Source: Solirubrobacterales bacterium
Lineage (GTDB): Bacteria; Actinomycetota; Thermoleophilia; Solirubrobacterales; Solirubrobacteraceae
DNA: 37,307 nucleotides
Direction: 5' to 3'
Assembly (NCBI GenBank): GCA_019240305.1
Contig: JAFAYP010000305.1
Coordinates: forward strand, 1 to 37,307
Shown: piece by piece, positions 2,051-29,110 of the stretch
Numbering within the stretch: position 1 is the first letter of the stretch
Layout of the letters: every line of letters starts with the position of its first letter
Notes under the pieces: model-generated
Told to the model about the DNA's origin: nothing
Seen by the model: only the letters and a program-made list of their open reading frames with translations
Database searches by the model: none
Made by a program: the position numbers and the translations under genes

Positions 2051-2152
2051 CATCTGAGCTGATCAAGCGAATTCTTGCACAGATGTTGACTTTTTCGGTC
2101 CCGCCAGGCACGCTAAGCGGCGAAGTGAGCACCCACGCGCTCATATGAGCGC
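2051..2152. promoter_or_regulatory. Divergent SorC/permease control region with palindromes
   Basis: The gap between the SorC gene and the permease contains a perfect 16-bp palindrome, GCGCTCATATGAGCGC, at 2137-2152. It also contains an outer inverted repeat, CATCTG at 2051-2056 against CAGATG at 2080-2085. TTGACT at 2086-2091 could be the -35 of the rightward promoter, although no good -10 follows. The palindrome lies just upstream of the purine-rich ribosome site of the permease, where a bound repressor would block transcription. Assignment to SorC is an inference from position. Confidence 0.55.
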
Positions 2153-2181: not shown

Positions 2182-3663
2182 ATGGCAGAGGCTCGTACCC
2201 AGACCAGCCGGCGGTCGGCTCCGCAGCGAAGCGAGTCCGCGCCGGCTCAATTCACCGGCCTGCTCGTAGCGGCCGCCGTGGTGTCGGCGATCGCGGGCCT
2301 GCTCTATGGCTACGACACGGGCATCATCTCCGGCGCGCTGCTCCAGATCAAAAAGGAGTTCGGGATCGGAAGCGGCATGCAGCAGGTGATCGCCTCCAGC
2401 ATCCTGCTCGGCGCCGTCATCGGGGCTTTGATCTGCAGCCGCGTGTCTGAACGCATCGGCCGCCGGCGGACCATCCGGGTGATCTCGTGCGTCTTCGTGG
2501 TCGGCGCCATCGGGAGCGCGATCGCTCCCACTCCGATACTGCTATCGGTCGGCCGGCTTATCCTTGGCTTCGCGGTCGGGGGTGGGACGCAGACAGTGCC
2601 GATGTACGTGGCCGAGCTGGCGCCCCCACAGCGTCGCGGACGCCTCGTGCTCACCTTCCAGCTGGCGATCGGCGTCGGCATCGTCATCTCCACGATCGTC
2701 GGCGCGACCGGCGCGATCTCCTGGCGAACCGCGATCGGCTCAGCCGCGGCGCCCGCCACGCTGATGCTGATCCTGATGCTGCGCCTGCCCGAGAGCCCGC
2801 GCTGGCTGATCAAGGACGATCAGCAGGACGCCGCTCGACAGGTGCTGGGTCGGATTCGCCCTTCGGGGGCCAACATCGACCCCGAGATGCACGACATCGT
2901 TGAACTGGAGCAGCAGGAGCGCCAAGCCCCCGAACGGTGTCGCGGCTGGAGCGGCCTGCGGCCACGGTGGATCCGACCCGCCCTGATCGTCGGGTGCGGG
3001 ATCGCGATCTTCACCCAGCTGAGCGGAATCGAGATGATCATCTATTACTCCCCCACCATCCTCACCAACAACGGCTTCTCGACCTCTGCGGCACTGCGCG
3101 TCAGCGTCGGCCTCGGGGTGACCTATCTCGTGATGATGATTGTGGGGCTCTCGATCGTCGACCGAGTCGGCCGCCGGCGCCTGACCCTGACGATGGTGCC
3201 AGGAGCAGCCGTCAGCCTCACGGTGCTCGGCGCGCTCTTCGTCACCGGCAACAGCGGGCGGAGCAGCACCTGGTTCATCATCGCCTGCCTCATCGTCTTC
3301 ATGTTCTTCAACGCCGGAGGGCTGCAACTGATGGGCTGGCTGACCGGCTCGGAGATCTATCCCCTCGCCGTCCGGAGCGCAGGAACCAGCGCCCAGGCAG
3401 CGACTCTCTGGAGCACCAACCTCCTGATCACGCTCACCCTCCTGACGATCATCAACGGAATTGGAGTCGGGCCGACCATGTGGCTCTACGCGGGCTTCAA
3501 CGTCGCCGCGTTCCTCTTCGTGTGGCGCCGCATGCCGGAGCTGACCGGACGCAGCCTCGAGCAGATCGAAACCCAACTGCGTGACGGACGGTTCCGTCCT
3601 GAGGACTTCAGCGGCACGCGCGCACCACCAACTCCGGTCAGTTCGGCCCCAGCGGCAACCTGA
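2182..3663 (+). CDS. MFS sugar/polyol:proton symporter (sugar porter family)
   Basis: This 493-residue permease carries the signatures of the sugar porter family. GYDTGIISGALL lies in the first helix, RIGRRR in the loop between helices 2 and 3, PESPRWL after helix 6, QLSGIEMIIYYSPT in helix 7, DRVGRRR between helices 8 and 9, GSEIYPLAVR near helix 10, and PELTGRSLEQIE at the C-terminal end. It is predicted to be an inner-membrane importer with 12 helices, using the proton gradient to take up a hexose, pentose, inositol or polyol. The ATG is preceded by a GGAGGGGAG ribosome site about 12 bases away. It is divergent from the SorC regulator and is probably induced with the kinase and dehydrogenase. 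The substrate cannot be read from sequence. Confidence 0.93.
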   Translation: MAEARTQTSRRSAPQRSESAPAQFTGLLVAAAVVSAIAGLLYGYDTGIISGALLQIKKEFGIGSGMQQVIASSILLGAVIGALICSRVSERIGRRRTIRVISCVFVVGAIGSAIAPTPILLSVGRLILGFAVGGGTQTVPMYVAELAPPQRRGRLVLTFQLAIGVGIVISTIVGATGAISWRTAIGSAAAPATLMLILMLRLPESPRWLIKDDQQDAARQVLGRIRPSGANIDPEMHDIVELEQQERQAPERCRGWSGLRPRWIRPALIVGCGIAIFTQLSGIEMIIYYSPTILTNNGFSTSAALRVSVGLGVTYLVMMIVGLSIVDRVGRRRLTLTMVPGAAVSLTVLGALFVTGNSGRSSTWFIIACLIVFMFFNAGGLQLMGWLTGSEIYPLAVRSAGTSAQAATLWSTNLLITLTLLTIINGIGVGPTMWLYAGFNVAAFLFVWRRMPELTGRSLEQIETQLRDGRFRPEDFSGTRAPPTPVSSAPAAT

Positions 3664-3706: not shown

Positions 3707-3763
3707 CTCGCGCCCGTACAGGCCAGAGGGGACTTCGGGTAGGGCGTCAGGAAAGCCTCTCTC

Positions 3764-4360
3764 GGGCCGCATCCCTGCGTTGGCAAACCCGGCCCCCAAG
3801 CCACCCAAGGGCCGCCAGGGTGAGGCGGTCGCGTTTGAGGCCGGGATCGAACTGGATGTGGCGGCACTGGAGCGCCGGCGTGAGGACCGGCGCAGCAGGT
3901 AGCGCGAGGCCTCCCATCAGCTCGACGCCCACCGCGAGCGCCAAGCTCGGCCGATCACCGATCCACGCCGGCCTGACGTTGACCCCGATGGTCACCGGAT
4001 CATCATCGGCATGACCGCCTCCTTCACGCTGGTCGACCGCCTCGGACGACACCTCCTCCACGTCGGGATCCTGCTCATCGCCGCAGGCGACGCCGCCGTT
4101 GCCCTCGTTCTCACCGGAGCTCACGGCGCCTCGACGTGGGGACCTCGTCCCGGGCCTGCTGTTCGCCGGCGTCGGCGCCGGCACCAGCTTCGCCCAGCTC
4201 TTCGGGTTCGTCCTCAACAGCGTCAACATGCAGGAGGTCGGATCCGCCCTCCGGTGTCCTGGAGGCGACCCAGCAGCTGTCGACCTCGCTCGGCGTCGCC
4301 GTCCTCGGCACGATCTTCTTCGCAGGCCGTTCGGTGGCCAGAGATTGGATGGCGCGACTG
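3764..4360 (+). pseudogene. Decayed DHA2-type MFS efflux transporter (C-terminal half)
   Basis: Pieces of the C-terminal half of an EmrB/QacA-like pump can be read in three successive frames. AGLTLTPMVTG lies near 3967-4000, a DRLGRHLL loop motif and the helix VGILLIAAG at about 4011-4120, LVPGLLFAGVGAGTSFAQL with NSVNMQEVGSA at about 4140-4244, and SGVLEATQQLSTSLGVAVLGTIFFAG at about 4244-4325. The last piece is the highly conserved helix-13 region of DHA2 pumps. At least two frameshifts separate the pieces and there is no continuous frame, so this is a dead gene. The stretch 3764-3900 holds another open frame, ending in ELDVAALERRREDRRSR, that I do not recognise. The N-terminal half is absent. 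Boundaries are approximate. Confidence 0.7.
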
Positions 4361-4384
4361 TCGGCTGGGTGGTGTTCCCCTTGC

Positions 4385-7006
4385 TCATAGCTCGTGGCGG
4401 TCACTGATGCCCAGTTTTTGCATGGCGCGGTAAAGGTGTGATTCGACGGTGCGGATGGAGAGCACCAGCTGGTCGGCGATTTGGGCGTTGGAGAGTCCGC
4501 GGGAAGCGAGTTGGACGAGTTGCTTCTCGCGTTTGGTGAGTGAGATCCGGGCGTGGTCCATTCCTTCGATTCGCGGCGCGATGCCGCCTTGGCCGCGTGC
4601 GTGGAGGTCGTGGCTGCGGCTGGCCGCGCGCCGCGCGGAGTCCTGCCGACCGGCTGCGGCAAAGGCGCTTGCCGCGTGCGCCGCTGCCTCGGTGGCGTAC
4701 CGCAGCGCGCCGATCGATTCCATCTCGTCTGCGGTCCGGAGCAGCGTTGTACCATCGTTGGCGGCGAGGGCGGTGGCGTGGGCGGTGGCGTGGGCGGTGT
4801 AGGCGGCGAGGAGTCGGGCGTCGCAGCGCTCGGTCAGCTCTGCGAGCATCGGCGTGAGCCGGCGAGCTGAGGCCCCGGCGCGTAGCGCTTCGTAGGTGAG
4901 GCGGCCGGCGTAGATCGGAAGGTCGGCGAGCTGTCGCGCGGTGTCGAGGAGGAGCTGCTGGGCGCGCAGCGGGTCGCCCTCGGCATGAGCCGCCCAGGCC
5001 TCGGCCCGCGCGAGGTAGGGCAGCTGGTTGGGGAGCGGGTCTCTGTCGGCCAGGGCGGCCCGGCAGCGCTCCAGGGTGGGCGTGACCTCCGGCAGGTTGC
5101 CGGTGAAGCAGGCGATCCCGACTTGCATCGATCTGGTGATCATGAGCAGACCACCCGCGTCGTGGCGCTCCAGCTGGAGCTCGGCCTCGGCCAGCCATCG
5201 TTGGGAGTCGTTGAAGCGCCCTTGCGAGAAGCGCAGTCCGCCGAGGGCCAGCGCGCCGCGGCCGGCGGCGGCGCTGTCTCCGAGGCGCACGCCGTCGGCG
5301 AGCGCGTTGGTAGCCCAGCTGTCGAGCTCTTCCCAGCCTTGACCGGTCTCGATGGCGATGACGCTCCAGAGCATGAACGCGAGCTGGTCGGTGAGGTCGC
5401 GCAGCGGCACGCTGGGGCGGATTTGGCGCGCCAGTGTGTAGGCCTCTTGGGTTTGGCCGCTGTAGAACAGGCTGGCGGCGCGCAGGGGCGCGAGTTGGCG
5501 CTGCGTCTCAGGATCTTCGTTGGCGTCGGCGAGGCTCGCGCCGGTGGCGGAGACGGTGGCGCCGGGACGCTGGCGTGCGGCGGCGCGCAGGCGCACTGGG
5601 GCCAGGCGCCGTCGCCATTGCGGGGTCGTCCACCACGACTCCGCGCGAGCGATCACAGCGGCCAGCTCATCCGGTTGGTTTAGCCCCCAGTAGAGGACCT
5701 CGGACTGCTGCTCAAGGTAGTCAAGCGCGACGTCCTGGGTGTCTAGCGTCGGCTCGATGCCGGCGAGGATCTGCTGGGCTTGCTCGTACTGGTTTTGCAT
5801 GCTGTGGGCGCGTGCGAGCACCAGCGCCGCCGGCACCCCGGCTCCTGCGTTGATGGCTCGCTGGGCCAGTTGCCCGGCCAGCGCGGGCTCTCCGGCGAGG
5901 TTGGCGGCCTGCGCCGCCTCGAGCAGCAAGCTGATGTTGATCTCTTCGCCGGCGTCAAGCAGCCAGCGCGCGACCCGCAGCTGGTCTAGGGCTCCGGGCT
6001 GCTCACGTTGGCGTACGACGGCGGCGAGCTTGAGTCGTGCTTGGCGTGCCCTGAACGTGGGGAGGTTGGCTCGAATGGTCTCGCCGTAGAGGGGATGGGC
6101 GAGCGTGACGGCTGGAGAGGCGGACTCGCTGACCTGGATTAATCCCCGCTCTTCCAGTGCCATGAGCGTCTCGCTGGCGGCCATCGTCATCATCTCTGAG
6201 AGGGCGAGCGGTTCGCCGAGGGTCAGCAGCTCGAGCGCCTCGCGCTCGGGCTGGCTCAAGCCCGTCATGCGCACGGCGATGAGTTCGGCGAGCGATGCGC
6301 TGACGGGCGGGCGCACCGGCAGTCTCCACAATCCGCTGATCTGGTGAAGCGCCCCGCTGGCGAGTGCCCCGACCATTAGTTCGCGAACATAGAGGGCGTT
6401 GCCGAGACTGGTGTCATAGATCCAGCCCTGCGCGGCCTGCTCGATCGGACCGCCGACGATCGCCTCCGCCAGGGCGGCGGTCTCTGTTACGTCCAGAGCG
6501 TCGAGTTCCAGGCGGTCGCCGCCGGCGTCCTTCCATAGCGACGTGATCGCGTCGGGCCGGGACTCGCCAGCGCGGACCGTTGCCAGCACAAAGGCGCCGC
6601 CGTCTATCGCCAGCTCCAACAGCACCGCGGCGGAGCTCGGATCGAGCGAGTGCGCATCGTCAACGACCAGCAGCGGTGGCTTGCGCCCCGCCAGCTCCCG
6701 AATCGCACGTGCGATGCTTTCCATCAGCTCGCGCGGGTCGTCCGCGCGCGCTGAGCTGGCAATCAGGCTGCTCAGAGCCGCCAACGGCACAGTGGCCGCG
6801 CTCGCCGTCGCTTGCACCCATTTTGTCGCGACGCCCTGCTCGTCGGCCTCCCGCAGCGCTTCGCGGGCCAAGCGCGACTTGCCGACGCCGGCAGCGCCGA
6901 TCACCGTCATCCCACTCGCACCCGCTGACTGCGCGCGGGCGATGAGCTCCAGCTCGCTGCTGCGGCCGACCAGCGGCCATCTGCGCTGCGACCGTGAAGA
7001 CGGCAC
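4385..7006 (-). CDS. Large ATP-binding LuxR-family regulator (LAL-type)
   Basis: From the GTG ending at 7006 the product is 873 residues. An AAA/STAND-type ATPase module opens the protein, with a WPLVGRSSEL start box at residues 10-19, Walker A GAAGVGKS at 37-44 and Walker B LLVVDDAH further on. A long alpha-helical, TPR-like middle follows. The last 55 residues or so form a LuxR/GerE helix-turn-helix containing LTKREKQLVQLASRGLSNAQ and a following RTVESHLYRAMQKLG. LAL regulators are ATP-dependent activators. A TTG at 7129 would give 914 residues, but the extra N-terminus looks unlike the family and would put the 18-bp palindrome at 7033-7050 inside the gene. I therefore prefer the GTG, which lacks a clear ribosome site. 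It is divergent from the membrane protein and hydrolase genes, its likely targets. Confidence 0.88.
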   Translation of the reverse strand: MPSSRSQRRWPLVGRSSELELIARAQSAGASGMTVIGAAGVGKSRLAREALREADEQGVATKWVQATASAATVPLAALSSLIASSARADDPRELMESIARAIRELAGRKPPLLVVDDAHSLDPSSAAVLLELAIDGGAFVLATVRAGESRPDAITSLWKDAGGDRLELDALDVTETAALAEAIVGGPIEQAAQGWIYDTSLGNALYVRELMVGALASGALHQISGLWRLPVRPPVSASLAELIAVRMTGLSQPEREALELLTLGEPLALSEMMTMAASETLMALEERGLIQVSESASPAVTLAHPLYGETIRANLPTFRARQARLKLAAVVRQREQPGALDQLRVARWLLDAGEEINISLLLEAAQAANLAGEPALAGQLAQRAINAGAGVPAALVLARAHSMQNQYEQAQQILAGIEPTLDTQDVALDYLEQQSEVLYWGLNQPDELAAVIARAESWWTTPQWRRRLAPVRLRAAARQRPGATVSATGASLADANEDPETQRQLAPLRAASLFYSGQTQEAYTLARQIRPSVPLRDLTDQLAFMLWSVIAIETGQGWEELDSWATNALADGVRLGDSAAAGRGALALGGLRFSQGRFNDSQRWLAEAELQLERHDAGGLLMITRSMQVGIACFTGNLPEVTPTLERCRAALADRDPLPNQLPYLARAEAWAAHAEGDPLRAQQLLLDTARQLADLPIYAGRLTYEALRAGASARRLTPMLAELTERCDARLLAAYTAHATAHATALAANDGTTLLRTADEMESIGALRYATEAAAHAASAFAAAGRQDSARRAASRSHDLHARGQGGIAPRIEGMDHARISLTKREKQLVQLASRGLSNAQIADQLVLSIRTVESHLYRAMQKLGISDRHEL

Positions 7007-7032
7007 CGAGCCGCACTCTAACCGCCCTAAAT

Positions 7033-7050
7033 GCAGTAGTCGACTACTGC
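7033..7050. promoter_or_regulatory. Perfect 18-bp palindrome between LuxR regulator and membrane-protein gene
   Basis: GCAGTAGTCGACTACTGC is identical to its own reverse complement and sits about 100 bp upstream of the ATG at 7150 and 27 bp upstream of the preferred regulator start. LuxR-family activators usually bind such dyads. It is the best candidate operator for the regulator at 4385-7006. Binding is inferred, not shown. Confidence 0.6.
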
Positions 7051-7149
7051 AGACAGTCCCGACCGGGTGCGGCAAGCTCCTCGCCATCTCGAGGTACGAG
7101 GAGACCTTCCCCCGCCTCGCCGCCCTCAATCAGATCGACTGGAGGAAGC

Positions 7150-7761
7150 ATGCCGTCAACCACCATCTCCGACTCCACCGCCGCCGGTGCTCGCGACCAC
7201 GGTGGGCCGAGGCTGGGCATCTATGTGGCCTTCGTGCCATGGGTGCTGTTCACGCTCGTGGCTCAGCATTCGACACTGAAATGGGCCGCCATCGCCGCGC
7301 TGGTCGTCTCAACGGCGATCGCCCTGCCCTCGCTGCTCAAGGGCCGCCCCAAGCTGCTGGAAATCGGAGCCGTCCTGACTTTCGTCGGCTTCACGGTGGT
7401 GGCGCTCAACGATCCCGGCGCCAGCGAGTGGGTGACCCGCTATGCGCGCGCGATCGCTGCGGCCATGCTGGCGCTGATCGCGTTTGGCTCGCTGCTGATC
7501 GTCCCCTTCACCGAGCAGTACGCCCGCGAGTCGGTCCCGCGCGAGTTCTGGTCCTCACCGCGGTTTAGGGAGATCAACCGCCGGCTGACGGCGATGTGGG
7601 CGCTGGTGTTCGCAGTGATGGTGCCGGCGCACGTGATCGCCGGCGCGATCGACACTCATCGCGCCAACCTGATCTTCAACTGGGCGATCCCGATCGTACT
7701 GATCGTGTGGGCGGCCAAGCGCACCGCCAAGGTCAGCGACGCCGCCGGCCGGGAAGCGTAA
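7150..7761 (+). CDS. Six-helix integral membrane protein of unknown function
   Basis: This 203-residue protein starts at an ATG seven bases after a strong GGAGGA ribosome site. It has six hydrophobic stretches: near residues 22-40 (LGIYVAFVPWVLFTLVAQ), 44-63, 68-88, around 102-122, around 150-172, and around 180-196 (LIFNWAIPIVLIVWAA). A short hydrophilic N-terminus precedes them and a basic tail follows. I do not recognise a catalytic motif, and the family is unknown to me. Its stop overlaps the start of the next gene as TAATG, so it is made together with the alpha/beta hydrolase. Both are divergent from the ATPase/LuxR regulator. A role in moving or sensing the hydrolase substrate is possible but unsupported. 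Confidence 0.82.
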   Translation: MPSTTISDSTAAGARDHGGPRLGIYVAFVPWVLFTLVAQHSTLKWAAIAALVVSTAIALPSLLKGRPKLLEIGAVLTFVGFTVVALNDPGASEWVTRYARAIAAAMLALIAFGSLLIVPFTEQYARESVPREFWSSPRFREINRRLTAMWALVFAVMVPAHVIAGAIDTHRANLIFNWAIPIVLIVWAAKRTAKVSDAAGREA

Positions 7762-9026
7762 TGACGACCGCTCGCTTCAGCGACGACGATTTCCAGTACG
7801 GCCTGGAGGTGGCGCTCGGCGCCAGCTACCGCCAAGCCGCCGATGTGGGCGAGGTTCTTGCCACCGCCGGGCGGATCGAGGACGGCGACGCAGACTCGTG
7901 GGTGCAGGAATGGACGGCGACCGCGGGCACAGCGTGGTCGGCGGCCATCGAAGCCGAGCACCACGGGCGGCGGGTCAGCGCCCTGGCCCACTTCCGGCGA
8001 GCCGCGACCTACTACGCCACCGCTCTGTATCGGATCTCGCACTCCAGCGAACCTGAGCGCGAGCTGGAGCTCTGGCGCCGCCAGCGGGAGTGCTGGGAGC
8101 ACGCGGTCGACCTGTTCGCGGCTCCGGGCGAGCGCCTGTCCATCCCCTATGAGGACACCACCCTGCCGGCTTACTTCTTCCGCGCACCTGACTCAATACC
8201 GGGCGAGTGCCGGCCGCTGGTGGTGGTCAACAACGGTAGCGACGGCGCCACCTCGCAGATGTGGGTGCACGGCGGCGCGGCGGCCAGCGACCGCGGCTAT
8301 CACTGGATGACCTTCGACGGTCCCGGTCAGCAGGCCGCTCTGTTCGAGCAGGGAATTCCGTTCCGACACGATTGGGAGGCCGTCCTGACACCCGTGCTCG
8401 ACGCCATGCTCGCGCGTCCCGACGTCGACCCCGACCGGGTCGCCGTGATCGGCATCAGCCAGGCCGGATACTGGGTCCCCCGCGCGCTGGCGTTCGAGCA
8501 CCGGCTCGCCGCCGCCGCGGTCGATCCCGGCGTCGTCGACGTGTCCAGCTCCTGGCTTGACCCGTTGCCAGAAGCGATGCGCAACCAGCTCCGCGATGGC
8601 CTGCAAACCGCGTTTGACCGCGAGATGCATCTCGTGGGCTTGTTCTCACCCCAGACCACCGCCACCCTGCGCTTTCGCGGCAAGCCTTACGGGCTAGACG
8701 GCAGCTCGACGTACGCGCTGTATAAGACGGTCAGCGCATACCAGCTCGGCACCGAGATCCGCGAAATTGCCACTCCGGTGCTGATCACTGACCCTGAGGA
8801 CGAGCAATTCTGGCCCGGGCAATCCCAACAACTCTACGACCACCTCCGCGTCCCGAAACACCTCGTTGCCTTCCGCTCCCATGACGGCGCCGGGCGCCAC
8901 TGTGAGCCGCTGGCCTGCGCCCAGCGGGACACCCAAATCTTCGACTGGCTCGCGAAATACCTCGGCGACGACCACCAGGACGAGATGGCCAGCACGACGG
9001 CGCCAGCCGCGAGCCGAACACGATGA
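7761..9026 (+). CDS. Alpha/beta hydrolase, FrsA / dihydropseudooxynicotine-hydrolase-like
   Basis: This 421-residue cytoplasmic protein has an alpha-helical N-terminal cap of about 140 residues followed by an alpha/beta hydrolase core. PLVVVNNGSDG begins the core and probably forms the oxyanion region. The nucleophile elbow is GISQAG, within VAVIGISQAGYW. The acid is probably the Asp in TDPEDEQFW and the base the His in GAGRHCE near the C-terminus. Length and cap match esterase/C-C-bond hydrolases of the FrsA and 2,6-dihydropseudooxynicotine hydrolase type, so a ketone or ester of an aromatic or alkaloid compound is a reasonable substrate guess. The ATG overlaps the stop of the membrane-protein gene (TAATG). 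The upstream in-frame extension belongs to the overlapping gene and is excluded. Confidence 0.88.
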   Translation: MTTARFSDDDFQYGLEVALGASYRQAADVGEVLATAGRIEDGDADSWVQEWTATAGTAWSAAIEAEHHGRRVSALAHFRRAATYYATALYRISHSSEPERELELWRRQRECWEHAVDLFAAPGERLSIPYEDTTLPAYFFRAPDSIPGECRPLVVVNNGSDGATSQMWVHGGAAASDRGYHWMTFDGPGQQAALFEQGIPFRHDWEAVLTPVLDAMLARPDVDPDRVAVIGISQAGYWVPRALAFEHRLAAAAVDPGVVDVSSSWLDPLPEAMRNQLRDGLQTAFDREMHLVGLFSPQTTATLRFRGKPYGLDGSSTYALYKTVSAYQLGTEIREIATPVLITDPEDEQFWPGQSQQLYDHLRVPKHLVAFRSHDGAGRHCEPLACAQRDTQIFDWLAKYLGDDHQDEMASTTAPAASRTR

Positions 9027-21656: not shown

Positions 21657-22727
21657 TCAGGCGGGTGCCCCGATGCCGGCGATCAGCTGTGTCAGCCTCA
21701 CGGCGTGGTCAAAGCTCGGGGCGGTGGTGGTGCCGGTCGTGATGTCCTCGCGGAGGGCGCGGTAGAGGCCGGCGACGTTCGCGGCGGCCTCCGGTAGGTC
21801 AGGGAATTCCTCGATTGTCTGCTCCTCGCCGTTGACGCGCAGCCGGAGGCGGCCCGATTGAAACCCGCGGATGGCGCCGCCCACGAGCACGATGCGGGCC
21901 TCGGTGCCGGTGATCTCGAGGTGGAACGGGGTGTCATCGGGCGGACGGCCGCCGACCACCTCCACAGACAGCGGCGCGCCCTCGTGTGTCCGCCCGAAGA
22001 CGAGGAGGTGGTCGGGGATCGATCGGATGAGCGTGTCGCCGCCCTCGACGGCGACCTCTGGATACTGGGTGCTCTGCAGGACGCAGGCCGGGGTGATTGG
22101 ACCGGTGAGGACGGTGGCGAGGTCAAGCGCGTGGCCGCCGTGGATGGCGATGTGCGTGGCGCCGTTGGCCGGGTCCTCGAGATCGGCGTCGCTCTGGGGG
22201 CTCGCCGGCCCGAAGGCGACCGTCGAGTCATACAGCCGGGCGCAGAGGATGCGGCCGAGGGCGCCGTCCTGGATGAGCTGGCGAGTCCGCTGGACCGCGG
22301 CGCTCATGCGCGCCTGCAGGCCGATGACCGCGTGGACGCCGGCATCGGCGGCAGCGTCGCGGAGCTCCTGGGCTTCGGCGACGTCGCGGCCGAGGGGCCA
22401 CTCGGTGAGGACGTGCTTGCCGGCGGCGACGGCGGCGAGGACGAGCTCGCGGTGCGCGGGGACGCGCACGCCGATGGTGACGAGGTCGATGTCGGCGTCG
22501 GCGAACAGCTCTGCGGGGTCGTCGTAGCCGCGGTCTGCGCCGAAGGCGTCCATCGCTGCCTCGGCGGATCGCCGGCTGCGCGTCGCGACGGCGGTCAGCT
22601 CGTAGCCGTCGAGGCTCTGGATGGCCGGGACGTGTGACTCCAGTGCCCAGCCTCCCGACGCGCTGGCGCCGATGATCGCGGTCCTCAGCGGGCGGTCGAG
22701 CCCGATCCTGGCTGGGCGGTCAATCAT
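21657..22727 (-). CDS. Gfo/Idh/MocA-family NAD(P)-dependent oxidoreductase
   Basis: The 356-residue protein has an N-terminal Rossmann fold with AIIGASASGGWALESHVPAIQSL at residues 17-39 and ELTAVATRSRRSAEAA. It continues with the family's conserved GKHVLTEWPLGRDVAEAQEL, where Glu replaces the usual catalytic Lys of the EKP motif (TEWP rather than EKP). The C-terminal alpha/beta domain contains GGHALDLATVLTG with a conserved histidine. The pattern resembles the Gal80/Idh subgroup. Members oxidise or reduce sugars and cyclitols, but the EKP change leaves catalysis uncertain and a regulatory role is conceivable. The ATG overlaps the preceding TetR-like fragment by eight bases. It may be the last gene of the aromatic operon. 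Confidence 0.88.
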   Translation of the reverse strand: MIDRPARIGLDRPLRTAIIGASASGGWALESHVPAIQSLDGYELTAVATRSRRSAEAAMDAFGADRGYDDPAELFADADIDLVTIGVRVPAHRELVLAAVAAGKHVLTEWPLGRDVAEAQELRDAAADAGVHAVIGLQARMSAAVQRTRQLIQDGALGRILCARLYDSTVAFGPASPQSDADLEDPANGATHIAIHGGHALDLATVLTGPITPACVLQSTQYPEVAVEGGDTLIRSIPDHLLVFGRTHEGAPLSVEVVGGRPPDDTPFHLEITGTEARIVLVGGAIRGFQSGRLRLRVNGEEQTIEEFPDLPEAAANVAGLYRALREDITTGTTTAPSFDHAVRLTQLIAGIGAPA

Positions 22728-23055
22728 CGCCGCCGCCTGCGCGCAGTCCGGCGCCGGCGAGGAAGGTGAGGGCGGCCTCGAGGACCTCCAGCGTCTCCCC
22801 GTGGCTGAGCGGGCGACGGCGCCGCCCCAGCCGGCGATTGCGCGCGGCGCTGAACGCGCTGGTCATCGCGGCGGCGACCAGGGCGGGTCGAACGTCGCCG
22901 GCACGCGCGTCGAGGGGCCACGTCGGGGACGGCGGCGATTCGTCTTGACAGCGGTGGGGCGAACGGCCTCGGTCTTCTCGCTGCGGCCACCTTTGCGGCC
23001 GTCGGCAAGGCTCGACGGAGTTCTCCGAACCGGACGCATCGGAAGACGCGCTCAT
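22720..23055 (-). pseudogene. Degenerate TetR-like frame with no helix-turn-helix
   Basis: A 111-residue frame from the ATG ending at 23055 starts MSASSDASGSENSVEP. After an arginine-, serine- and proline-rich stretch it ends with DVRPALVAAAMTSAFSAARNRR and SHGETLEVLEAALTFLAGAGLR, helices resembling the last two of a TetR repressor ligand domain. No HTH pattern is visible. The adjacent frame at about 22930-23010 reads GGRSEKTEAVRPTAVKTNRR, as expected just before a TetR HTH, which suggests a frameshift plus a deletion. It overlaps the Gfo/Idh/MocA start by eight bases. The identification rests on short helical patterns. Confidence 0.4.
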
Positions 23056-23222
23056 CACCTTCTGGTCCGCGTCCTCGGCGGCCTTGACGGAGCCTATGGC
23101 GGGGCGCTCCACTCGTGCGTGGTCTGGTCTAATGCCGCTGTGGTGTGCGTTGGCGAGTAGGCCCGGCGTCGATGGCGGGGACTGCTCATCAGGTTTGTCG
23201 CGGCGACGCGCCGTTGATGGGA

Positions 23223-23996
23223 TCAGGAGACGGCCGTTGGCGCCTTCGCGGGGGCGAGCACGAAGTTGTAGTCGATCTTCAGGGTGCCGTTCTCGGCGCG
23301 TTCGGGGTGGACGACGAGCTCGGCCTTGACGGCGCTGGCGACGTCGGAGTCGAGGTAGTCGCTGGTGTCGATGAACAGCTGGGTGACGAGCGGTTCGAGG
23401 TTGCCGGCGGAGATGATGAGGTGGATGTGCGCTGGGCGCCAAGGGCTCCATCCGGCGGCCGCCGTCATCGCGTGCGTCGGGCCGTCGAGCGGAATCGTGT
23501 ACGGACCGGGGATGACCGTCCGGAACTCGTAGTGACCGTTCTCGTCGGCGGTCACCTGGCCGCGAAGGTTGCCGTCAGGCGGGCCTGGCATGAAGCTCGA
23601 GTAACGGCCGTCCGCGTCGGCCTGCCACACGTCAAGGTTGGCGCCGGCGAGCGGATTGCCGTCGGTGTCCAGAACGCGCCCGGTGACGAGCGTGGGATCG
23701 CCCTTCTCCTCGAGACGATGGGGAAGCTCGAACGGGGCGTGGAGGTGGGGAGCGCCCGGCAGGTGGAATGGGCCAAGGATGGTGCCTTGCGAGCCCGCGC
23801 GGTCGCTGAAGTTTTGCTCCTCGACCCAGTGCTCGATGTAGACGTCGCCGAACAGCGGCCACTCGCCGGCTTCACCGACATCAATCAACCACTGCTTGAC
23901 CCCCTGGTACTCGTCATAGGTGACGTCGTGCTCAACGATGACCTCGTGCAGTTTCTGCAGGACGTCGCTGATAAGCAGGTTGGCTCGGTCAGACAT
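23223..23996 (-). CDS. catA: Catechol 1,2-dioxygenase (intradiol ring-cleavage dioxygenase)
   Basis: The 257-residue protein has the N-terminal helical dimer domain of catechol dioxygenases and an intradiol core. All four non-haem Fe(III) ligands are visible: Tyr132 in DGRYSSF, Tyr166 in PGPYTIP, and His190 and His192 in RPAHIHLII. It is expected to cleave catechol with O2 to cis,cis-muconate in the cytoplasm. The ATG ending at 23996 has a strong AGGAGGAG ribosome site, and the upstream extension is spurious. It lies 20 bp downstream of the muconolactone isomerase gene in the leftward operon. A hydroxyquinol dioxygenase is the main alternative, but the neighbouring catB- and catC-like genes favour catechol. 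Confidence 0.92.
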   Translation of the reverse strand: MSDRANLLISDVLQKLHEVIVEHDVTYDEYQGVKQWLIDVGEAGEWPLFGDVYIEHWVEEQNFSDRAGSQGTILGPFHLPGAPHLHAPFELPHRLEEKGDPTLVTGRVLDTDGNPLAGANLDVWQADADGRYSSFMPGPPDGNLRGQVTADENGHYEFRTVIPGPYTIPLDGPTHAMTAAAGWSPWRPAHIHLIISAGNLEPLVTQLFIDTSDYLDSDVASAVKAELVVHPERAENGTLKIDYNFVLAPAKAPTAVS

Positions 23997-24016
23997 GGCT
24001 CTCCTCCTGGTGTTGA

Positions 24017-24292
24017 TCAAAGTGCGTTGGGGTGGCGCGCGAGCGGGGTGACGCGAATGTCGAGGTAGGGAAACAGCGGTAGCCCGGAGAGCAGCTCGTG
24101 CAATTCGTCGACGGAGTCGACGTCGAGGATGCTCACGTTGGCGTTTCGGCCCGCAACGCGCCACAACTGCGGCCACCGACCATCAGCCTGTGCGGCCTGA
24201 GAGTAGGCCCGCTCGCGGTCTCGGAGCTGCTGGGCCCGTTCGGGCTCCATGTCAGGAGGCAGCCGGACCTCCATCTCGGCCATGAAAAGCAT
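24017..24292 (-). CDS. catC: Muconolactone delta-isomerase
   Basis: The 91-residue protein matches muconolactone isomerase in length and pattern: MLFMAEMEVRLPPDMEPERAQQLRDRERAYSQAAQADGRWPQLWRVAGRNANVSILDVDSVDELHELLSGLPLFPYLDIRVTPL. It is a small ferredoxin-like subunit that forms a decamer and converts muconolactone to 3-oxoadipate enol-lactone. Its ATG shares one base with the stop of the cycloisomerase gene (TGATG), so translation is tightly coupled. The gene order catB-catC-catA is a known arrangement for the ortho-cleavage pathway. Confidence 0.94.
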   Translation of the reverse strand: MLFMAEMEVRLPPDMEPERAQQLRDRERAYSQAAQADGRWPQLWRVAGRNANVSILDVDSVDELHELLSGLPLFPYLDIRVTPLARHPNAL

Positions 24293-25431
24293 CAGCCGTC
24301 ACTGCGGTAGCGGCTGAGCGCACCGGGATCGACAAGCACACCGAGCCCCGGCTGATCAGGCACGGTGACGCGCCCGTCGACGATCTCCGGCGGTGTGACG
24401 AGGTCGCCCGCGAGGTCGAGGAAGTTGGCGGCCTCGATCGGGGTCGTGGCCAGCTCGGCGTCGCTTGCGGCAAAGGCGATCGAGGCCCACGCGCCGAGCG
24501 CACCCTCGTACTGGCTGCCGATAATCGCGCGGGTGGCGGTCGCGCGGCAATATGCGAGGATCGCCGCGGATTCGACGAATGCCGTGCGCGCGATCTTGAT
24601 GCTCACCTGGCTGACAGGGCCCGCGACCTCGCGAGCGACGTCGGTGAGGCTGAGACAGCTCTCGTCGCCGCCGATCGGTATCGGCGAGGCCTCGCTCAGC
24701 TGCTGGCGGCCTGCAGCGTCGGCAAGATCAAGCGGTTCCTCGATTGCCTGCACGCCCAGTTCGAGCAGTGCCGGCTGAGCCTCACGGGCCTGCGCGAGGG
24801 TCCAGCCGCGATTGGCGTCGACGTAGAGCGTCGCATCCCGCACGGCCTCGCGGACCGCGCGGACGCTCGCCACGTCAAGCGCGACGTCGCGGCCCACCTT
24901 GACCTTGAAGGTGGTGATGCCGAGCCGCTCGTGTAGAGCGACCGCATCTTGGGCCATCTCCTCTGGAGTGCCGAAGCTGATCATGCACGCGACCGGCAGC
25001 GAGTCGCTTGCGCCACCGAGCATCCGGCCACAGGAAACACCGACCAACTGGCCGGCGAGATCGGCCAGCGCGACCTCAACCGCGGCACGGGCGCAGCGGT
25101 TGCCAGACAGACCGGCACAGACCGCCCGCGCGCGCTCATGCGCGACTGGATCGACGCCCTCCAACCGCGGCGCGAACCAGTCGCGCACCGCACGGAGGAT
25201 CGACCCCTGCGTCTCTCCATAGGTGTAGGGGCGCGGCTGGGCCTCCGCGCAGCCGACCAGCCCGGCGTCACTGTAGACGCGGACCAGGACGTTGTCGGCA
25301 ATGGTGATCGTGCCCGACGCGAACCCGACCGAGCGACGCAGCGGCAAGGCGACCGGGATCGCCTCGACGGCGACCACCCGAGCGTCGGTTGACGCGATTG
25401 TCGTGGAAAGCACGTCACCCTGGATGCTCAT
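24292..25431 (-). CDS. catB: Muconate cycloisomerase (enolase superfamily)
   Basis: The 379-residue protein has the capping domain and TIM barrel of the muconate-lactonising subgroup. The catalytic KxK motif is at Lys176 and Lys178 (TFKVKVG). Metal ligands are Asp205 (VDANRGW), Glu231 (IEEPL) and Asp256 (GGDES), and Lys279 (SIKIART) is the opposite acid/base. It should turn cis,cis-muconate into muconolactone. The ATG ending at 25431 lies four bases after the flavin reductase stop; a longer frame to 25476 is not supported. The downstream catC starts on its stop. Other enolase-superfamily reactions share these residues, so the assignment also relies on catA and catC beside it. Confidence 0.92.
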   Translation of the reverse strand: MSIQGDVLSTTIASTDARVVAVEAIPVALPLRRSVGFASGTITIADNVLVRVYSDAGLVGCAEAQPRPYTYGETQGSILRAVRDWFAPRLEGVDPVAHERARAVCAGLSGNRCARAAVEVALADLAGQLVGVSCGRMLGGASDSLPVACMISFGTPEEMAQDAVALHERLGITTFKVKVGRDVALDVASVRAVREAVRDATLYVDANRGWTLAQAREAQPALLELGVQAIEEPLDLADAAGRQQLSEASPIPIGGDESCLSLTDVAREVAGPVSQVSIKIARTAFVESAAILAYCRATATRAIIGSQYEGALGAWASIAFAASDAELATTPIEAANFLDLAGDLVTPPEIVDGRVTVPDQPGLGVLVDPGALSRYRSDG

Positions 25432-25435
25432 GGCG

Positions 25436-25933
25436 TCACCATCCCCAGCTCGTGAACACGGGCTCGTTGGCCACACGAGCGAACTGGCCGGAGTGAAATA
25501 GCAGCGGCTGGCCTACCCGGGCGGAGAAGCCGCGAACCTGACCGACGTAGAGGGTGTGGTCGCCGGCCTCGTGCTCGGCGTAGCAGTCGCAGACGAAGTG
25601 CGCGATCGCGCCGTCAACGACAGGCGTATCGTCCGTCCAGACGAACGGGTCTGGCTGTTCAGGATCGGGACGGCCGGCGAAATGCATCGCCAGCCGCTCC
25701 TGCTCGGTGGCCAGCACCGACACCCCGTAGCGGCGGGTGTCGGGCAGCATCTGGTGCATCCGCGCGCGGTTGTCCACCGAAACGAGGATCAGCGGTGGCT
25801 GCAGCGACACCGCCGTGAAGGCGTTCGCCGTCATCGCGTGAACCGCGCCTTTCGCAGCGGTCGAGACGACCGTGACTCCAGTCGCGAATCGACCGAGGGT
25901 GTCGCGCAAGGCGCGCGGGTCGAGATCGTTCAT
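25436..25933 (-). CDS. Flavin reductase component of the phenol monooxygenase (HpaC-type)
   Basis: The 165-residue protein belongs to the flavin reductase-like split-barrel family. The opening LRDTLGRFATGVTVVSTAAKGAVHAMTANAFTAVSLQPPLILVSVDN, followed by the SVLATEQERLAMHFAGR segment and the ending LLFHSGQFARV, are typical. It uses NAD(P)H to make free FADH2 or FMNH2, which diffuses to the HpaB-type oxygenase encoded two genes upstream. Its ATG overlaps the stop of the FAD synthetase-like gene (ATGA), so oxygenase, FAD maker and reductase form a coupled block. A flavin preference cannot be read from the sequence, although the neighbour suggests FAD. Confidence 0.92.
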   Translation of the reverse strand: MNDLDPRALRDTLGRFATGVTVVSTAAKGAVHAMTANAFTAVSLQPPLILVSVDNRARMHQMLPDTRRYGVSVLATEQERLAMHFAGRPDPEQPDPFVWTDDTPVVDGAIAHFVCDCYAEHEAGDHTLYVGQVRGFSARVGQPLLFHSGQFARVANEPVFTSWGW

Positions 25934-26472
25934 GTCGCCTCCGCCATCTCGTGGCCGAGCACGGGAGCCCAGCCGTGTATCGCGAGCGGGGCGGGGACCC
26001 CAGCGGCCACGGCACGACGAATCGTGCTGGAGCTGATCTTGGCCGTGAGTCCCGGACGCCCCAGCACCGGCACCGCACAGACCTCGACCCCCAGAGCCCG
26101 CAGCGCCGTGAGGTCACCCGCACCGCCGCGTCCGCAGCGGAACTCCGAACCCACACACAACACGGTCATCCGATGGCGCTCGCGCAGGCCAGCGACGAAC
26201 TGCGCGGCAGACTGGCGCATCAGCTCTGCGGTGAAGCTGAGGATCTCGACGTGATCAGCGCCGGCCGCTCGTAGCCGCGCGACCCGCTCCGCGACCGAGC
26301 AGAGGTCGGGCAGCGGACGTCGCGCGCGACCGAGCGCGACGTCCGGTCGCGGCGAGAAGGTCACCGCGACCAGCGACTTGCCGCGCCCGTCGGCCTGCCG
26401 CCGGGCATCGGCGAGCAGCGCTCGATGCCCGGCATGGACCCCGTCAAACGTGCCGACAGTGACGACAGTCAT
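25930..26472 (-). CDS. Stand-alone FAD synthetase (RibF N-terminal domain only)
   Basis: The 180-residue protein is the adenylyltransferase half of bifunctional RibF. It has the nucleotide-binding GTFDGVHAGH at residues 7-16, VAVTFSPRP at 36-43, the flavin-binding VGSEFRCGRGGAGDLTAL at 108-124, and ISSSTIRRAV at 146-155. It ends after GHEMAEAT, where full RibF proteins would begin the riboflavin kinase domain, so that domain is absent. The expected reaction is FMN plus ATP to FAD. The start is the ATG ending at 26472, four bases after the oxygenase stop, and its own stop overlaps the reductase start. The position between the two components of an FADH2-dependent monooxygenase argues for local FAD supply. 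The housekeeping RibF should be elsewhere. Confidence 0.88.
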   Translation of the reverse strand: MTVVTVGTFDGVHAGHRALLADARRQADGRGKSLVAVTFSPRPDVALGRARRPLPDLCSVAERVARLRAAGADHVEILSFTAELMRQSAAQFVAGLRERHRMTVLCVGSEFRCGRGGAGDLTALRALGVEVCAVPVLGRPGLTAKISSSTIRRAVAAGVPAPLAIHGWAPVLGHEMAEAT

Positions 26473-26476
26473 CGCC

Positions 26477-28048
26477 TCAGCGCCGGCCGGTGCCCATGAA
26501 TCGGTTGACGTCGGTTGGGTTGATGAGGTCCGGTGCGGTCCATCCGTCAAGGTCGTACTCGGCCAAGCACCGGTCAGCGAAGCCCTTGTACTCGTCAACC
26601 TTGCCGCTGGCGGTGGCGCTGAGCAGCACCTCCAGGCGGATGTTCTCGTGGTTGCCGGCGTAGTTGCGCTCATACAGCTCATGGCGCCCACCGAACTCCG
26701 AGCCCATCGCGTCCCAGAGGAGCTTCATCAGCTTGACCCGCTCGACGGCGTCATAGCCGTTGGAGCCGCGCACGTACTTGTCCAGCGTCGGGCGGATCTC
26801 GGACTTGAAGTCGACCGCGTGGGAATTGAGATAGATGAGCGCTGAGCCGAGATCCTGCTCGATGATCTCCTTGACCCGCGGGTACGCGGTGGTCGCGAAC
26901 ACGCGATAGGCCAGCCCGGTCTCCTCATTGGGCAGCACCGCGTCGCCGATCCAGGGGTCGGGGTTGCGCGCCATGGCGTCGGAGAACGCCCAGAACATGT
27001 TGCGGTAGGCGAGCAGCTCGCCGACCCGCGCCTGCACGCCACGGAAGTCCTTCGCGCCCGTGGCCTCCACGCCCTTGAGCATCAGCCCGGCGATGAAGTC
27101 CAGCTTGACCGCGAAGCGCACGCACCCGTGGAAGGTGAAGCGCGGGACAAATCCCGAAGCCGGGAAGAAGGTGTTGATCTTGTCGACGTCGCCGTAGACG
27201 AACACGTTCTCCCAGGGGACGAGCACCTCCTCGAACACGAGGATCGAGTCGTTCTCATCGAGTCGGCTGGAAAGCGGGTAGTCGAACGGACTGCCCATCA
27301 CCTCCGCCGCATACGCGTAGGACGGCCGGCAGATCAGCTTCACCCCCGCCGCGTCCATCGGCACCGCGAAGATCACCGCAAAGTCTTTGGTCTTGATCGG
27401 CGCGGCGCCGTAGTGGGCGATGAAGTTGAAATGCGTCAGCGCAGATCCGGTGGCCACCACCTTCGCCCCGGACACCACCAGCCCCTCATCGGTCTCGCGG
27501 TCAACGTGGATGTAGACGTCGCGGACTTGATCGACGCCCTTGTCGCGGTCCACCGGTGGATTGACGATCGCGTGGTTGAAATAAAGACAGCGCTCCTGCG
27601 CGTCTCGATACCAGCGCTTGGCGTTGTCCTGATAGGGCTCATAGAACCCCGAATTAGCGCCGAGGGTCCCCAGAAACGCCGCCTTGTAATCGGGGGAACG
27701 GCCCATCCAGCCATAGCTGGTCCGCGCCCACTCGGCGATCGCGTCCCGGTCGGCCACGCAGTCCTCGACCGCATGCGGAGTACGAAAGAACGGGTGAGTG
27801 AACGTCCCCGATCCCGTATCGGTCGGCGTGGTCAGCACATCCCGGTACGCCGGGTCGTGCAGCTGGTCGTACATGCGAGCGATCATCCGCGCCGCGTTTC
27901 GGAACGCCGGATGCGTGGTGACGTCGTCCACCCGCTCGCCGTAGGCCCAGATCTCGCGACGATCGCGAACCGACTCCAGATATTCCTCGCCGGTAAGCGG
28001 ACCGACGGTCGAAGAAGTCGACGATTGAGGGCCAGTCTCGGTCGCCAT
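26477..28048 (-). CDS. HpaB-family FADH2-dependent phenol/4-hydroxyphenylacetate monooxygenase, oxygenase component
   Basis: The 523-residue protein has the full HpaB family layout and length. The N-terminal acyl-CoA-dehydrogenase-like helical part begins [23 protein letters not shown]. The centre has the conserved [15 protein letters not shown] and [23 protein letters not shown], and the C-terminal HpaB domain contains [19 protein letters not shown]. It hydroxylates a phenolic ring in ortho position with reduced FAD and O2. The neighbouring catA, catB and catC genes suggest phenol to catechol, although chlorophenols or 4-hydroxyphenylacetate cannot be excluded. The ATG ending at 28048 has an AGGAG ribosome site. 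It is the first gene of the leftward operon, and a longer upstream frame reads through the promoter and is rejected. Confidence 0.93.
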
Positions 28049-28101
28049 GTCTCTCACTCCTAGTCGTGGACGGCTGACAAGCCAGGAAACTATCTCGTTC
28101 G

Positions 28102-28153
28102 CGACTTCAGTGGGACTGATCTCGACTTGACTAAGTCGTGAGACAGCATAATC
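28102..28153. promoter_or_regulatory. LysR-type binding sites between the phenol operon and its regulator
   Basis: CGACTT occurs at 28102-28107 and again at 28123-28128, 21 bp apart (two helical turns). The second copy forms the dyad CGACTTGACTAAGTCG at 28123-28138. This fits a LysR recognition site plus a weaker activation site towards the operon promoter. CATAAT at 28147-28152 lies on the regulator side, so binding at the dyad would also repress the regulator gene. Confidence 0.6.
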
Positions 28154-28162
28154 TGTTGCCTT

Positions 28163-29110
28163 GTGGAGTTGCGCCACCTCAGGGCCTTCATCGCCGTCGC
28201 CGAAGAACTGCACTTCGGCCGCGCCGCCGCACGGCTGCAGATCTCCCAGTCCCCGTTGTCTCAGTCGATCCGCTCGCTGGAGGCCGAGCTCGGTGTCGGG
28301 CTGCTCGAACGCACCACCCGCCGCGTCACGCTCCTGCCCGCCGGCGAGGCGTTCCTCCCACGGGCGCGGGAAGCATTGGCCGCCGCCACCCAAGCCGTCG
28401 AAGACGCCCGCGCTACGGCCGCCGGCGAACTCGGGCACCTCGACGTCGGATTCACCGGCTCGATGACCTACCTACTGCTGCCCCTGCTGGCCAAGGCCCT
28501 GCGCGCCCGGCTGCCGCGCCTCCGGCTGCAGCTGCACGGCGAGATGCTCACCCCCGATCAAGTCGAAGGCCTTCTCAGCGGCCGCCTCGACCTCGGCCTC
28601 CTGCGCCCACCCCTCAACCATCCCGGTCTCCAACTCGAACCGATCGGCTCCGAGCCGCTCGTCGCCGTCTTGCCGGCTAACCATCCCCTCGCGCGCCAAG
28701 ACCGAATACCAGTCAGCCGCCTCAAGGACGAACCCTTCATCACCTACCCCTCACATTTCCGATCGGTCGTTCACGACGCCGTCGCCGCGACCTGCGCAGA
28801 GCACGGCTTCTCCCCAACCGTGGCGACCGAGGTGGGAGAAACCTCCACCCTCGTGAGCTTCGTCGCCGCCGACGCCGGAGTCGCGCTCGTACCCGCCTCC
28901 GCACAACTGATGCGGATCGGCGGAGCCGTCTACCGCCAACTCCTCGGCGCCACCCACAGCGTGCAGATCGCCATCGCCTGGCGACGCAGCGACGAACGAC
29001 GGCTGCTGACAAACGTCCGGCACATCATCACCGATGAACTCACAACACTCCGCGGCGGAAAATCCCACTACACCACACCCGAACTCGACCTTCGCCAGAT
29101 CATCTTCTAG
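28163..29110 (+). CDS. LysR-family regulator of the aromatic operon (CatR/BenM-like)
   Basis: The 315-residue protein begins at a GTG with [65 protein letters not shown], the winged-helix of the CatR/CbnR/BenM branch. That branch is marked by HFGRAA and the ISQxxLSxxI helix. The effector domain follows ([57 protein letters not shown]). Relatives activate catechol and benzoate operons on binding muconate. It is divergent from the monooxygenase operon with dyad repeats between, the standard layout. The ligand (muconate or the phenol itself) is inferred. No ribosome site is evident before the GTG. Confidence 0.92.

What the first reader, a model, noticed from the sequence alone, without database searches (positions are those of the whole stretch)
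4385..9026. ATPase/LuxR regulator facing a membrane protein-hydrolase pair
A large LAL-type activator is divergent from a six-helix protein of unrecognised family and an FrsA/pseudooxynicotine-hydrolase-like enzyme that overlap as TAATG. A perfect 18-bp palindrome lies between. The pair may be a small uptake-and-cleave system for an unknown ester or ketone, controlled by one dedicated regulator.
Basis: partly seen in the sequence, partly recalled or inferred. Interest (0 to 1): 0.6.

Follow-up and report, generated by a model that had tools for sequence, protein, structure and literature searches.

The report
LAL activator, shared operator, hydrolase regulon
In a family of uncultured soil actinobacteria, a large ATP-driven LuxR-type switch very probably turns on a membrane protein and a hydrolase from a palindromic DNA site, and the same site with the same promoter layout heads many other genes in relatives that carry this switch, so the palindrome marks a real regulon rather than one isolated uptake-and-cleave pair.

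Summary
A LAL (STAND ATPase-LuxR) gene (probable start GTG at 7006) diverges from a 203-aa membrane protein (7150-7761) and a SMU_737/pseudooxynicotine-hydrolase/FrsA-like hydrolase (7761-9026, TAATG overlap). The palindrome is 20 bp (7032-7051), not 18. It is part of a conserved promoter module: CAGTAGYSSRCTACTG, NNGACR as -35, 17 bp, SANNNT as -10, often 6-8 nt before the start codon. At <=1 mismatch the module occurs 20 times in 8 of 399 genomes of the class (reversed control 0), all 8 carrying this LAL subfamily. In the family, 11 of 15 LAL-positive and 1 of 131 LAL-negative genomes have it. It heads the membrane protein, the hydrolase, transporter-like proteins, an AMP-ligase, oxidoreductases and secreted proteins. 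The dedicated uptake-and-cleave pair is not supported: each of the two genes also occurs at the box without the other, the membrane protein is a distant VC0807-like protein without a transporter signature, and in one genus the boxed hydrolases lost Ser, Asp and His. Best reading: an inducer-activated LAL regulon, perhaps for handling or exporting toxic organic compounds (role inferred). DNA binding is untested.

The parts
4385..7006 (-). LAL-type (STAND ATPase-LuxR) regulator; probable start GTG 7004-7006, longest ORF to TTG 7129
   Evidence: AAA_16 and GerE Pfam matches; homologues align from about residue 43-50 of the long ORF
7032..7051 (.). 20-bp perfect palindrome, probable LAL operator; core CAGTAGTCGACTACTG at 7034-7049
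   Evidence: conserved in relatives
7050..7055 (+). -35-like hexamer CAGACA overlapping the operator edge
   Evidence: NNGACR conserved in aligned sites
7073..7078 (+). -10-like hexamer CAAGCT (SANNNT), 17 bp after the -35; transcription start predicted near 7085
   Evidence: A and T invariant in 25 aligned sites; present also at all sites in LAL-positive genomes found by a search that did not ask for it
7150..7761 (+). 203-aa multi-pass membrane protein, distant VC0807-like; ribosome-binding GGAGGA at 7141-7146
   Evidence: helices in a low-confidence model
7761..9026 (+). 421-aa alpha/beta hydrolase, SMU_737 / DHPON hydrolase / Ayg1 / FrsA-like; probable triad Ser233, Asp344, His380

Best explanation
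This is one target locus of a LAL (STAND-LuxR) regulon found in part of one Solirubrobacterales family. Shown: the palindrome at 7032-7051 is part of a fixed promoter module (operator, weak -35, 17 bp, SANNNT -10) that occurs in genomes carrying this LAL subfamily and hardly elsewhere, and it reads into the membrane protein-hydrolase operon. Inferred: the LAL rests ADP-bound until a small inducer binds its sensor; it then takes up ATP, multimerises, binds the 20-bp site centred about -43 from the start of transcription (class II geometry) and recruits RNA polymerase to a promoter too weak to work alone. Inferred with less certainty: the regulon handles a toxic or signalling organic compound by export and enzymatic attack; the membrane protein and hydrolase are separately reusable members of it, not an obligate pair. 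In the window the hydrolase has an intact probable triad and likely cleaves an ester, thioester or activated C-C bond. About 0.85 for the LAL-operator assignment, about 0.4 for the detoxification/export role; the figure below is for the regulatory mechanism.
For: Operator and -35/-10 spacing conserved over diverged flanks. Family scan: 39 sites in 12 of 146 genomes against 13 control sites. Class scan at <=1 mismatch: 20 sites in 8 of 399 genomes, control 0, all 8 LAL-positive. LAL-positive 11/15 with box, LAL-negative 1/131, Fisher p 1.5e-12; within genus g1 5/7 against 0/21. 16 of 28 sites have a start codon 6-8 nt after the -10. LALs beside boxes share nearly the same HTH. Hydrolase homologues in LAL-negative genomes have no box (5-8 mismatches).
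Against: No binding or expression data. Genomes are related, so the Fisher values overstate independence. Four LAL-positive genomes (G133, G205, G121, G141) lack a site at <=2 mismatches, though weaker candidates exist in G133, G121 and G141. Many other LuxR-type proteins are encoded in these genomes, so the binder could be another GerE protein. Gene calls next to sites are mechanical. The role of the regulon rests on gene names only.
Confidence: 0.78

Rival explanations
1. One reading: a small dedicated uptake-and-cleave system, in which the membrane protein imports an ester or ketone and the hydrolase cleaves it, under one dedicated LAL.
For: Overlapping genes under one promoter, conserved with the LAL in window, G203, G178, G183; intact probable triad; only one site found in the own, incomplete genome.
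Against: Each gene occurs at the box without the other (G201; G133, G148 C85); other targets are diverse; no transporter signature; triad lost in g15.
Confidence: 0.1
2. The hydrolase (and perhaps the membrane protein) acts mainly as a protein partner that restrains the LAL, as Aes and MalK restrain MalT.
For: Hydrolase genes lie next to LAL genes in three genera; in g15 the boxed copies lost Ser, Asp and His, and G180 against G063 gives dN/dS 0.23; MalT is repressed by direct contact with Aes and MalK (PMC10427625).
Against: Triad intact in the window, g1 and g11 copies; no interaction data; dN/dS is about 0.6 between the more distant g15 copies, with high synonymous divergence.
Confidence: 0.13
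3. The palindrome serves another DNA-binding protein, or represses the LAL gene itself, and LAL adjacency is incidental.
For: The site lies 26 bp upstream of the LAL start, so it could affect the LAL gene; GerE-type regulators are abundant in these genomes (first-look candidate counts).
Against: Module is directional toward the target genes and tracks the presence of this LAL subfamily within three genera.
Confidence: 0.1
4. The palindrome is a chance feature without function.
For: A lone 20-bp palindrome is not extremely rare in 37 kb; a 16-bp one lies at 2137-2152.
Against: Conserved sequence and fixed spacing; 20 sites against 0 control in the class scan.
Confidence: 0.02

Closest known systems
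MalT of E. coli and the LAL (large ATP-binding LuxR) regulators
   Same: N-terminal AAA/STAND ATPase domain and C-terminal GerE HTH; inducer- and ATP-dependent multimerisation is the known mode for MalT (PMC4381067)
   Different: Operator here is a single 20-bp palindrome at the -35 rather than multiple MalT boxes; inducer unknown; only the HTH of the NCBIfam MalT model matches, and AbsR2 matches far below its cut-off (226 against 850 bits)
LuxR-type class II activation at a 20-bp lux-box-like site (general knowledge)
   Same: 20-bp palindrome centred about -43, overlapping the -35
   Different: Regulator is a LAL, not an autoinducer-binding LuxR; many targets look leaderless
SMU_737 (3fnb), DHPON hydrolase (2jbw), Ayg1/Wdyg1 (8qd1, 8qd7), AntI (6hxa), FrsA (3mve)
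   Same: Profile of the family matches 3fnb over its full length (E 2e-38) and the others over part; GXSXG nucleophile and Ser-Asp-His arrangement
   Different: About 45-80% identical relatives form a separate actinobacterial group with no characterised member found here; g15 copies lack the triad
VC0807 family (NF041646) and DUF3159
   Same: 16 of 26 homologues match NF041646, 2 match DUF3159
   Different: The window protein is below the cut-off (17.5 against 65 bits); no function is known for the family

Membership tests
LAL (STAND-LuxR) regulators | N-terminal AAA/STAND ATPase domain with Walker A | tested here: met
   AAA_16 E 6e-14 above cut-off; GAAGVGKS in the sequence
LAL (STAND-LuxR) regulators | C-terminal GerE/LuxR HTH, total length about 850-950 aa | tested here: met
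   GerE E 1e-14 at the C-terminus of 873-914 aa
LAL (STAND-LuxR) regulators | Inducer- and ATP-dependent activation of transcription | not testable with these tools
   needs purified protein or reporter
LuxR-type class II operator-promoter | Conserved palindrome at fixed distance from -35/-10 | tested here: met
LuxR-type class II operator-promoter | Bound by the neighbouring regulator | not testable with these tools
   only co-occurrence: 11/15 against 1/131 genomes
SMU_737 / DHPON hydrolase / FrsA-like alpha/beta hydrolases | Profile match over N-terminal helical and hydrolase domains | tested here: met
   3fnb over 3-401, E 2e-38
SMU_737 / DHPON hydrolase / FrsA-like alpha/beta hydrolases | Ser-Asp-His triad | tested here: met
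   window Ser233, Asp344, His380 by alignment; absent in g15 copies
DHPON-type C-C hydrolase | Glu248 near the substrate (remembered from 2jbw) | tested here: inconclusive
   alignment around the site is ambiguous, Leu266 or Asp267
VC0807 family | NF041646 score at or above 65 bits | tested here: not met
   17.5 bits for the window protein, although many homologues match
Known uptake transporter families | Match to a transporter model in Pfam or NCBIfam | tested here: not met
   none for the window protein

The most novel reading that the evidence does not exclude
The hydrolase, and perhaps the membrane protein, is a protein partner of the LAL rather than, or besides, an enzyme: a feedback sensor that binds and restrains it, as the esterase Aes and the transporter subunit MalK restrain MalT in E. 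coli (PMC10427625). In genus g15 the boxed hydrolases have lost Ser, Asp and His, yet stay under the operator, lie next to LAL genes, and two of them show dN/dS 0.23, like the intact copies.
Probability: 0.13. Interest if true: 0.7.

Novelty: new member of a known kind. Interest (0 to 1): 0.5.

Why it matters
Few LAL regulators have a known operator or regulon (general knowledge). Here comparative genomics alone gives an operator, its promoter geometry and a target list for a LAL subfamily in little-studied soil actinobacteria, and each step can be tested with one reporter or gel shift. If the triad-less hydrolases turn out to bind the LAL, it would parallel Aes-MalT control and show hydrolase-fold proteins reused as partners of STAND switches.

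Tried and rejected
Structure prediction of both small proteins gave poor models (pLDDT 57 and 38; alignments of 4 and 3 sequences), so no fold search was run. Phylum-wide hydrolase homologues (33-47% identity) show no shared neighbourhood and, with one weak exception (26% identity, G391), no LAL, so the link is confined to this family. Genes downstream of the hydrolase differ between genera and define no pathway. The G109 site is treated as chance: it lies inside a called ORF and the genome lacks the LAL. A regular-expression comparison of further LAL HTHs printed nothing. Paper searches found no description of this box or regulon in the held library. A recalled likeness of the membrane protein to YciB/IspZ was a lead only: one of 26 homologues matched septation protein A, at E 0.04.

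Full report
What is there. The LAL gene (4385-7129 as the longest ORF; probable start GTG 7006) carries AAA_16 and GerE domains. Divergent from it lie a 203-aa membrane protein (7150-7761) and a 421-aa hydrolase (7761-9026) that share TAATG. The palindrome between them is 20 bp, 7032-7051. The long LAL start would put the palindrome inside the gene; most homologues align only from about residues 43-50, and in G203 the extended frame has a stop, so the GTG start is preferred.

Conservation of the locus. The membrane protein and hydrolase occur together next to related LAL genes in several Solirubrobacterales genomes: G203/L062 (LAL 69%, the other two 82%), G178 contig C316 (LAL fragment 59%, then 63 and 72%), G178 contig C188 (hydrolase broken) and G183 (LAL convergent). 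G101 shows the pair at a contig edge. The pair is not obligate. In G201 the box reads straight into the hydrolase. In G133 and G148 contig C85 the membrane protein has no hydrolase beside it; in G148 an MFS gene follows it, 73% identical to one beside the LAL of G133.

The operator is part of a promoter module. The palindrome core CAGTAGYSSRCTACTG is followed by NNGAC(R) and, exactly 17 bp after that hexamer, by a hexamer with A at position 2 and T at position 6. The first pattern search did not ask for the -10, yet all 11 of its sites in LAL-positive genomes have SANNNT at that place. In 25 aligned sites the A and T are invariant, though later members of that set were found with a pattern that included them. 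In 16 of 28 sites with a clear gene the start codon lies 6-8 nt after the -10, as expected for leaderless messages. In the window the -35 is 7050-7055, the -10 is 7073-7078 and the operator centre is about -43 from the predicted start: the geometry of an activator overlapping the -35 (class II; general knowledge).

The module follows the regulator. In 146 genomes of the family (<=2 mismatches) there are 39 sites in 12 genomes, against 13 for the reversed control scattered over the set. In 399 genomes of the class (<=1 mismatch) there are 20 sites in 8 genomes and no control site. The LAL subfamily (E <=1e-50) is in 15 of the 146 family genomes; the box is in 11 of these and in 1 of 131 others. 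The association holds inside three genera, although related genomes are not independent. Hydrolase homologues in LAL-negative genomes lack the box. LALs beside boxes share nearly the same HTH.

The regulon. Genes directly behind sites include the membrane protein, the hydrolase, an MFS protein of the DHA2 type, a multi-pass DMT-like protein (no Pfam match; named by eye), a phenylacetate-CoA-ligase-like AMP-binding enzyme, an FAD_binding_4 oxidase, a luciferase-like monooxygenase, an ABM-like protein, a GDSL lipase, another alpha/beta hydrolase, a DsbA-like thioredoxin, and small secreted or pentapeptide-repeat proteins. This mixture fits handling and export of a harmful or signalling organic compound better than one catabolic pathway, but that is inference.

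The proteins. The hydrolase profile matches 3fnb (SMU_737) over its full length and, more weakly, DHPON hydrolase, Ayg1, AntI and FrsA. Ayg1 and AntI trim polyketides by C-C or thioester cleavage with a Ser-His-Asp triad (PMC11165489). The window protein has Ser233, Asp344 and His380 at the matching places. In genus g15 all three are lost although the genes keep the operator, and G180 against G063 gives dN/dS 0.23. The membrane protein is a distant VC0807-like protein of unknown function.

Mechanism. By analogy with MalT (PMC4381067), an inducer probably switches the LAL from a resting ADP form to an ATP-bound multimer that binds the box and recruits polymerase to a weak promoter. Shown here: the module, its conservation, its co-occurrence with the LAL, its targets. 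Inferred: binding, inducer, activation rather than repression, and biological role. A further possibility, suggested by the triad-less hydrolases and by Aes and MalK acting on MalT (PMC10427625), is that the hydrolase or membrane protein feeds back on the LAL by direct contact.

Noticed in passing
window 2137-2152: A 16-bp perfect palindrome GCGCTCATATGAGCGC lies between a SorC/DeoR-type sugar-binding regulator (1075-2046, -) and a sugar porter MFS gene (2182-3663, +), a likely operator.
   Followed up: no
window 3750-4390: Plus-strand fragments in different frames resemble the C-terminal part of a DHA2-type MFS exporter (weak tblastn, E about 0.001-0.01), convergent with the LAL as an intact MFS gene is in G133: probably a decayed gene.
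   Followed up: partly
window 21657-29110: Likely aromatic (hydroxyquinol/chlorophenol-type) catabolic cluster: GFO_IDH_MocA oxidoreductase, intradiol dioxygenase, MR_MLE cycloisomerase, FAD_syn-like protein, HpaB-type monooxygenase and a LysR regulator.
   Followed up: partly
L087, L088, L089 (genus g15 loci): Near the boxed hydrolase lie a lysyl-tRNA synthetase-LPG synthase fusion (LysX-like) and two adjacent LAL genes, with a divergent pair of boxes between hydrolase and DMT-like gene.
   Followed up: partly
L079 (G178 contig C188), behind the membrane protein: The hydrolase reading frame is broken behind an intact membrane protein gene and an intact box.
   Followed up: no
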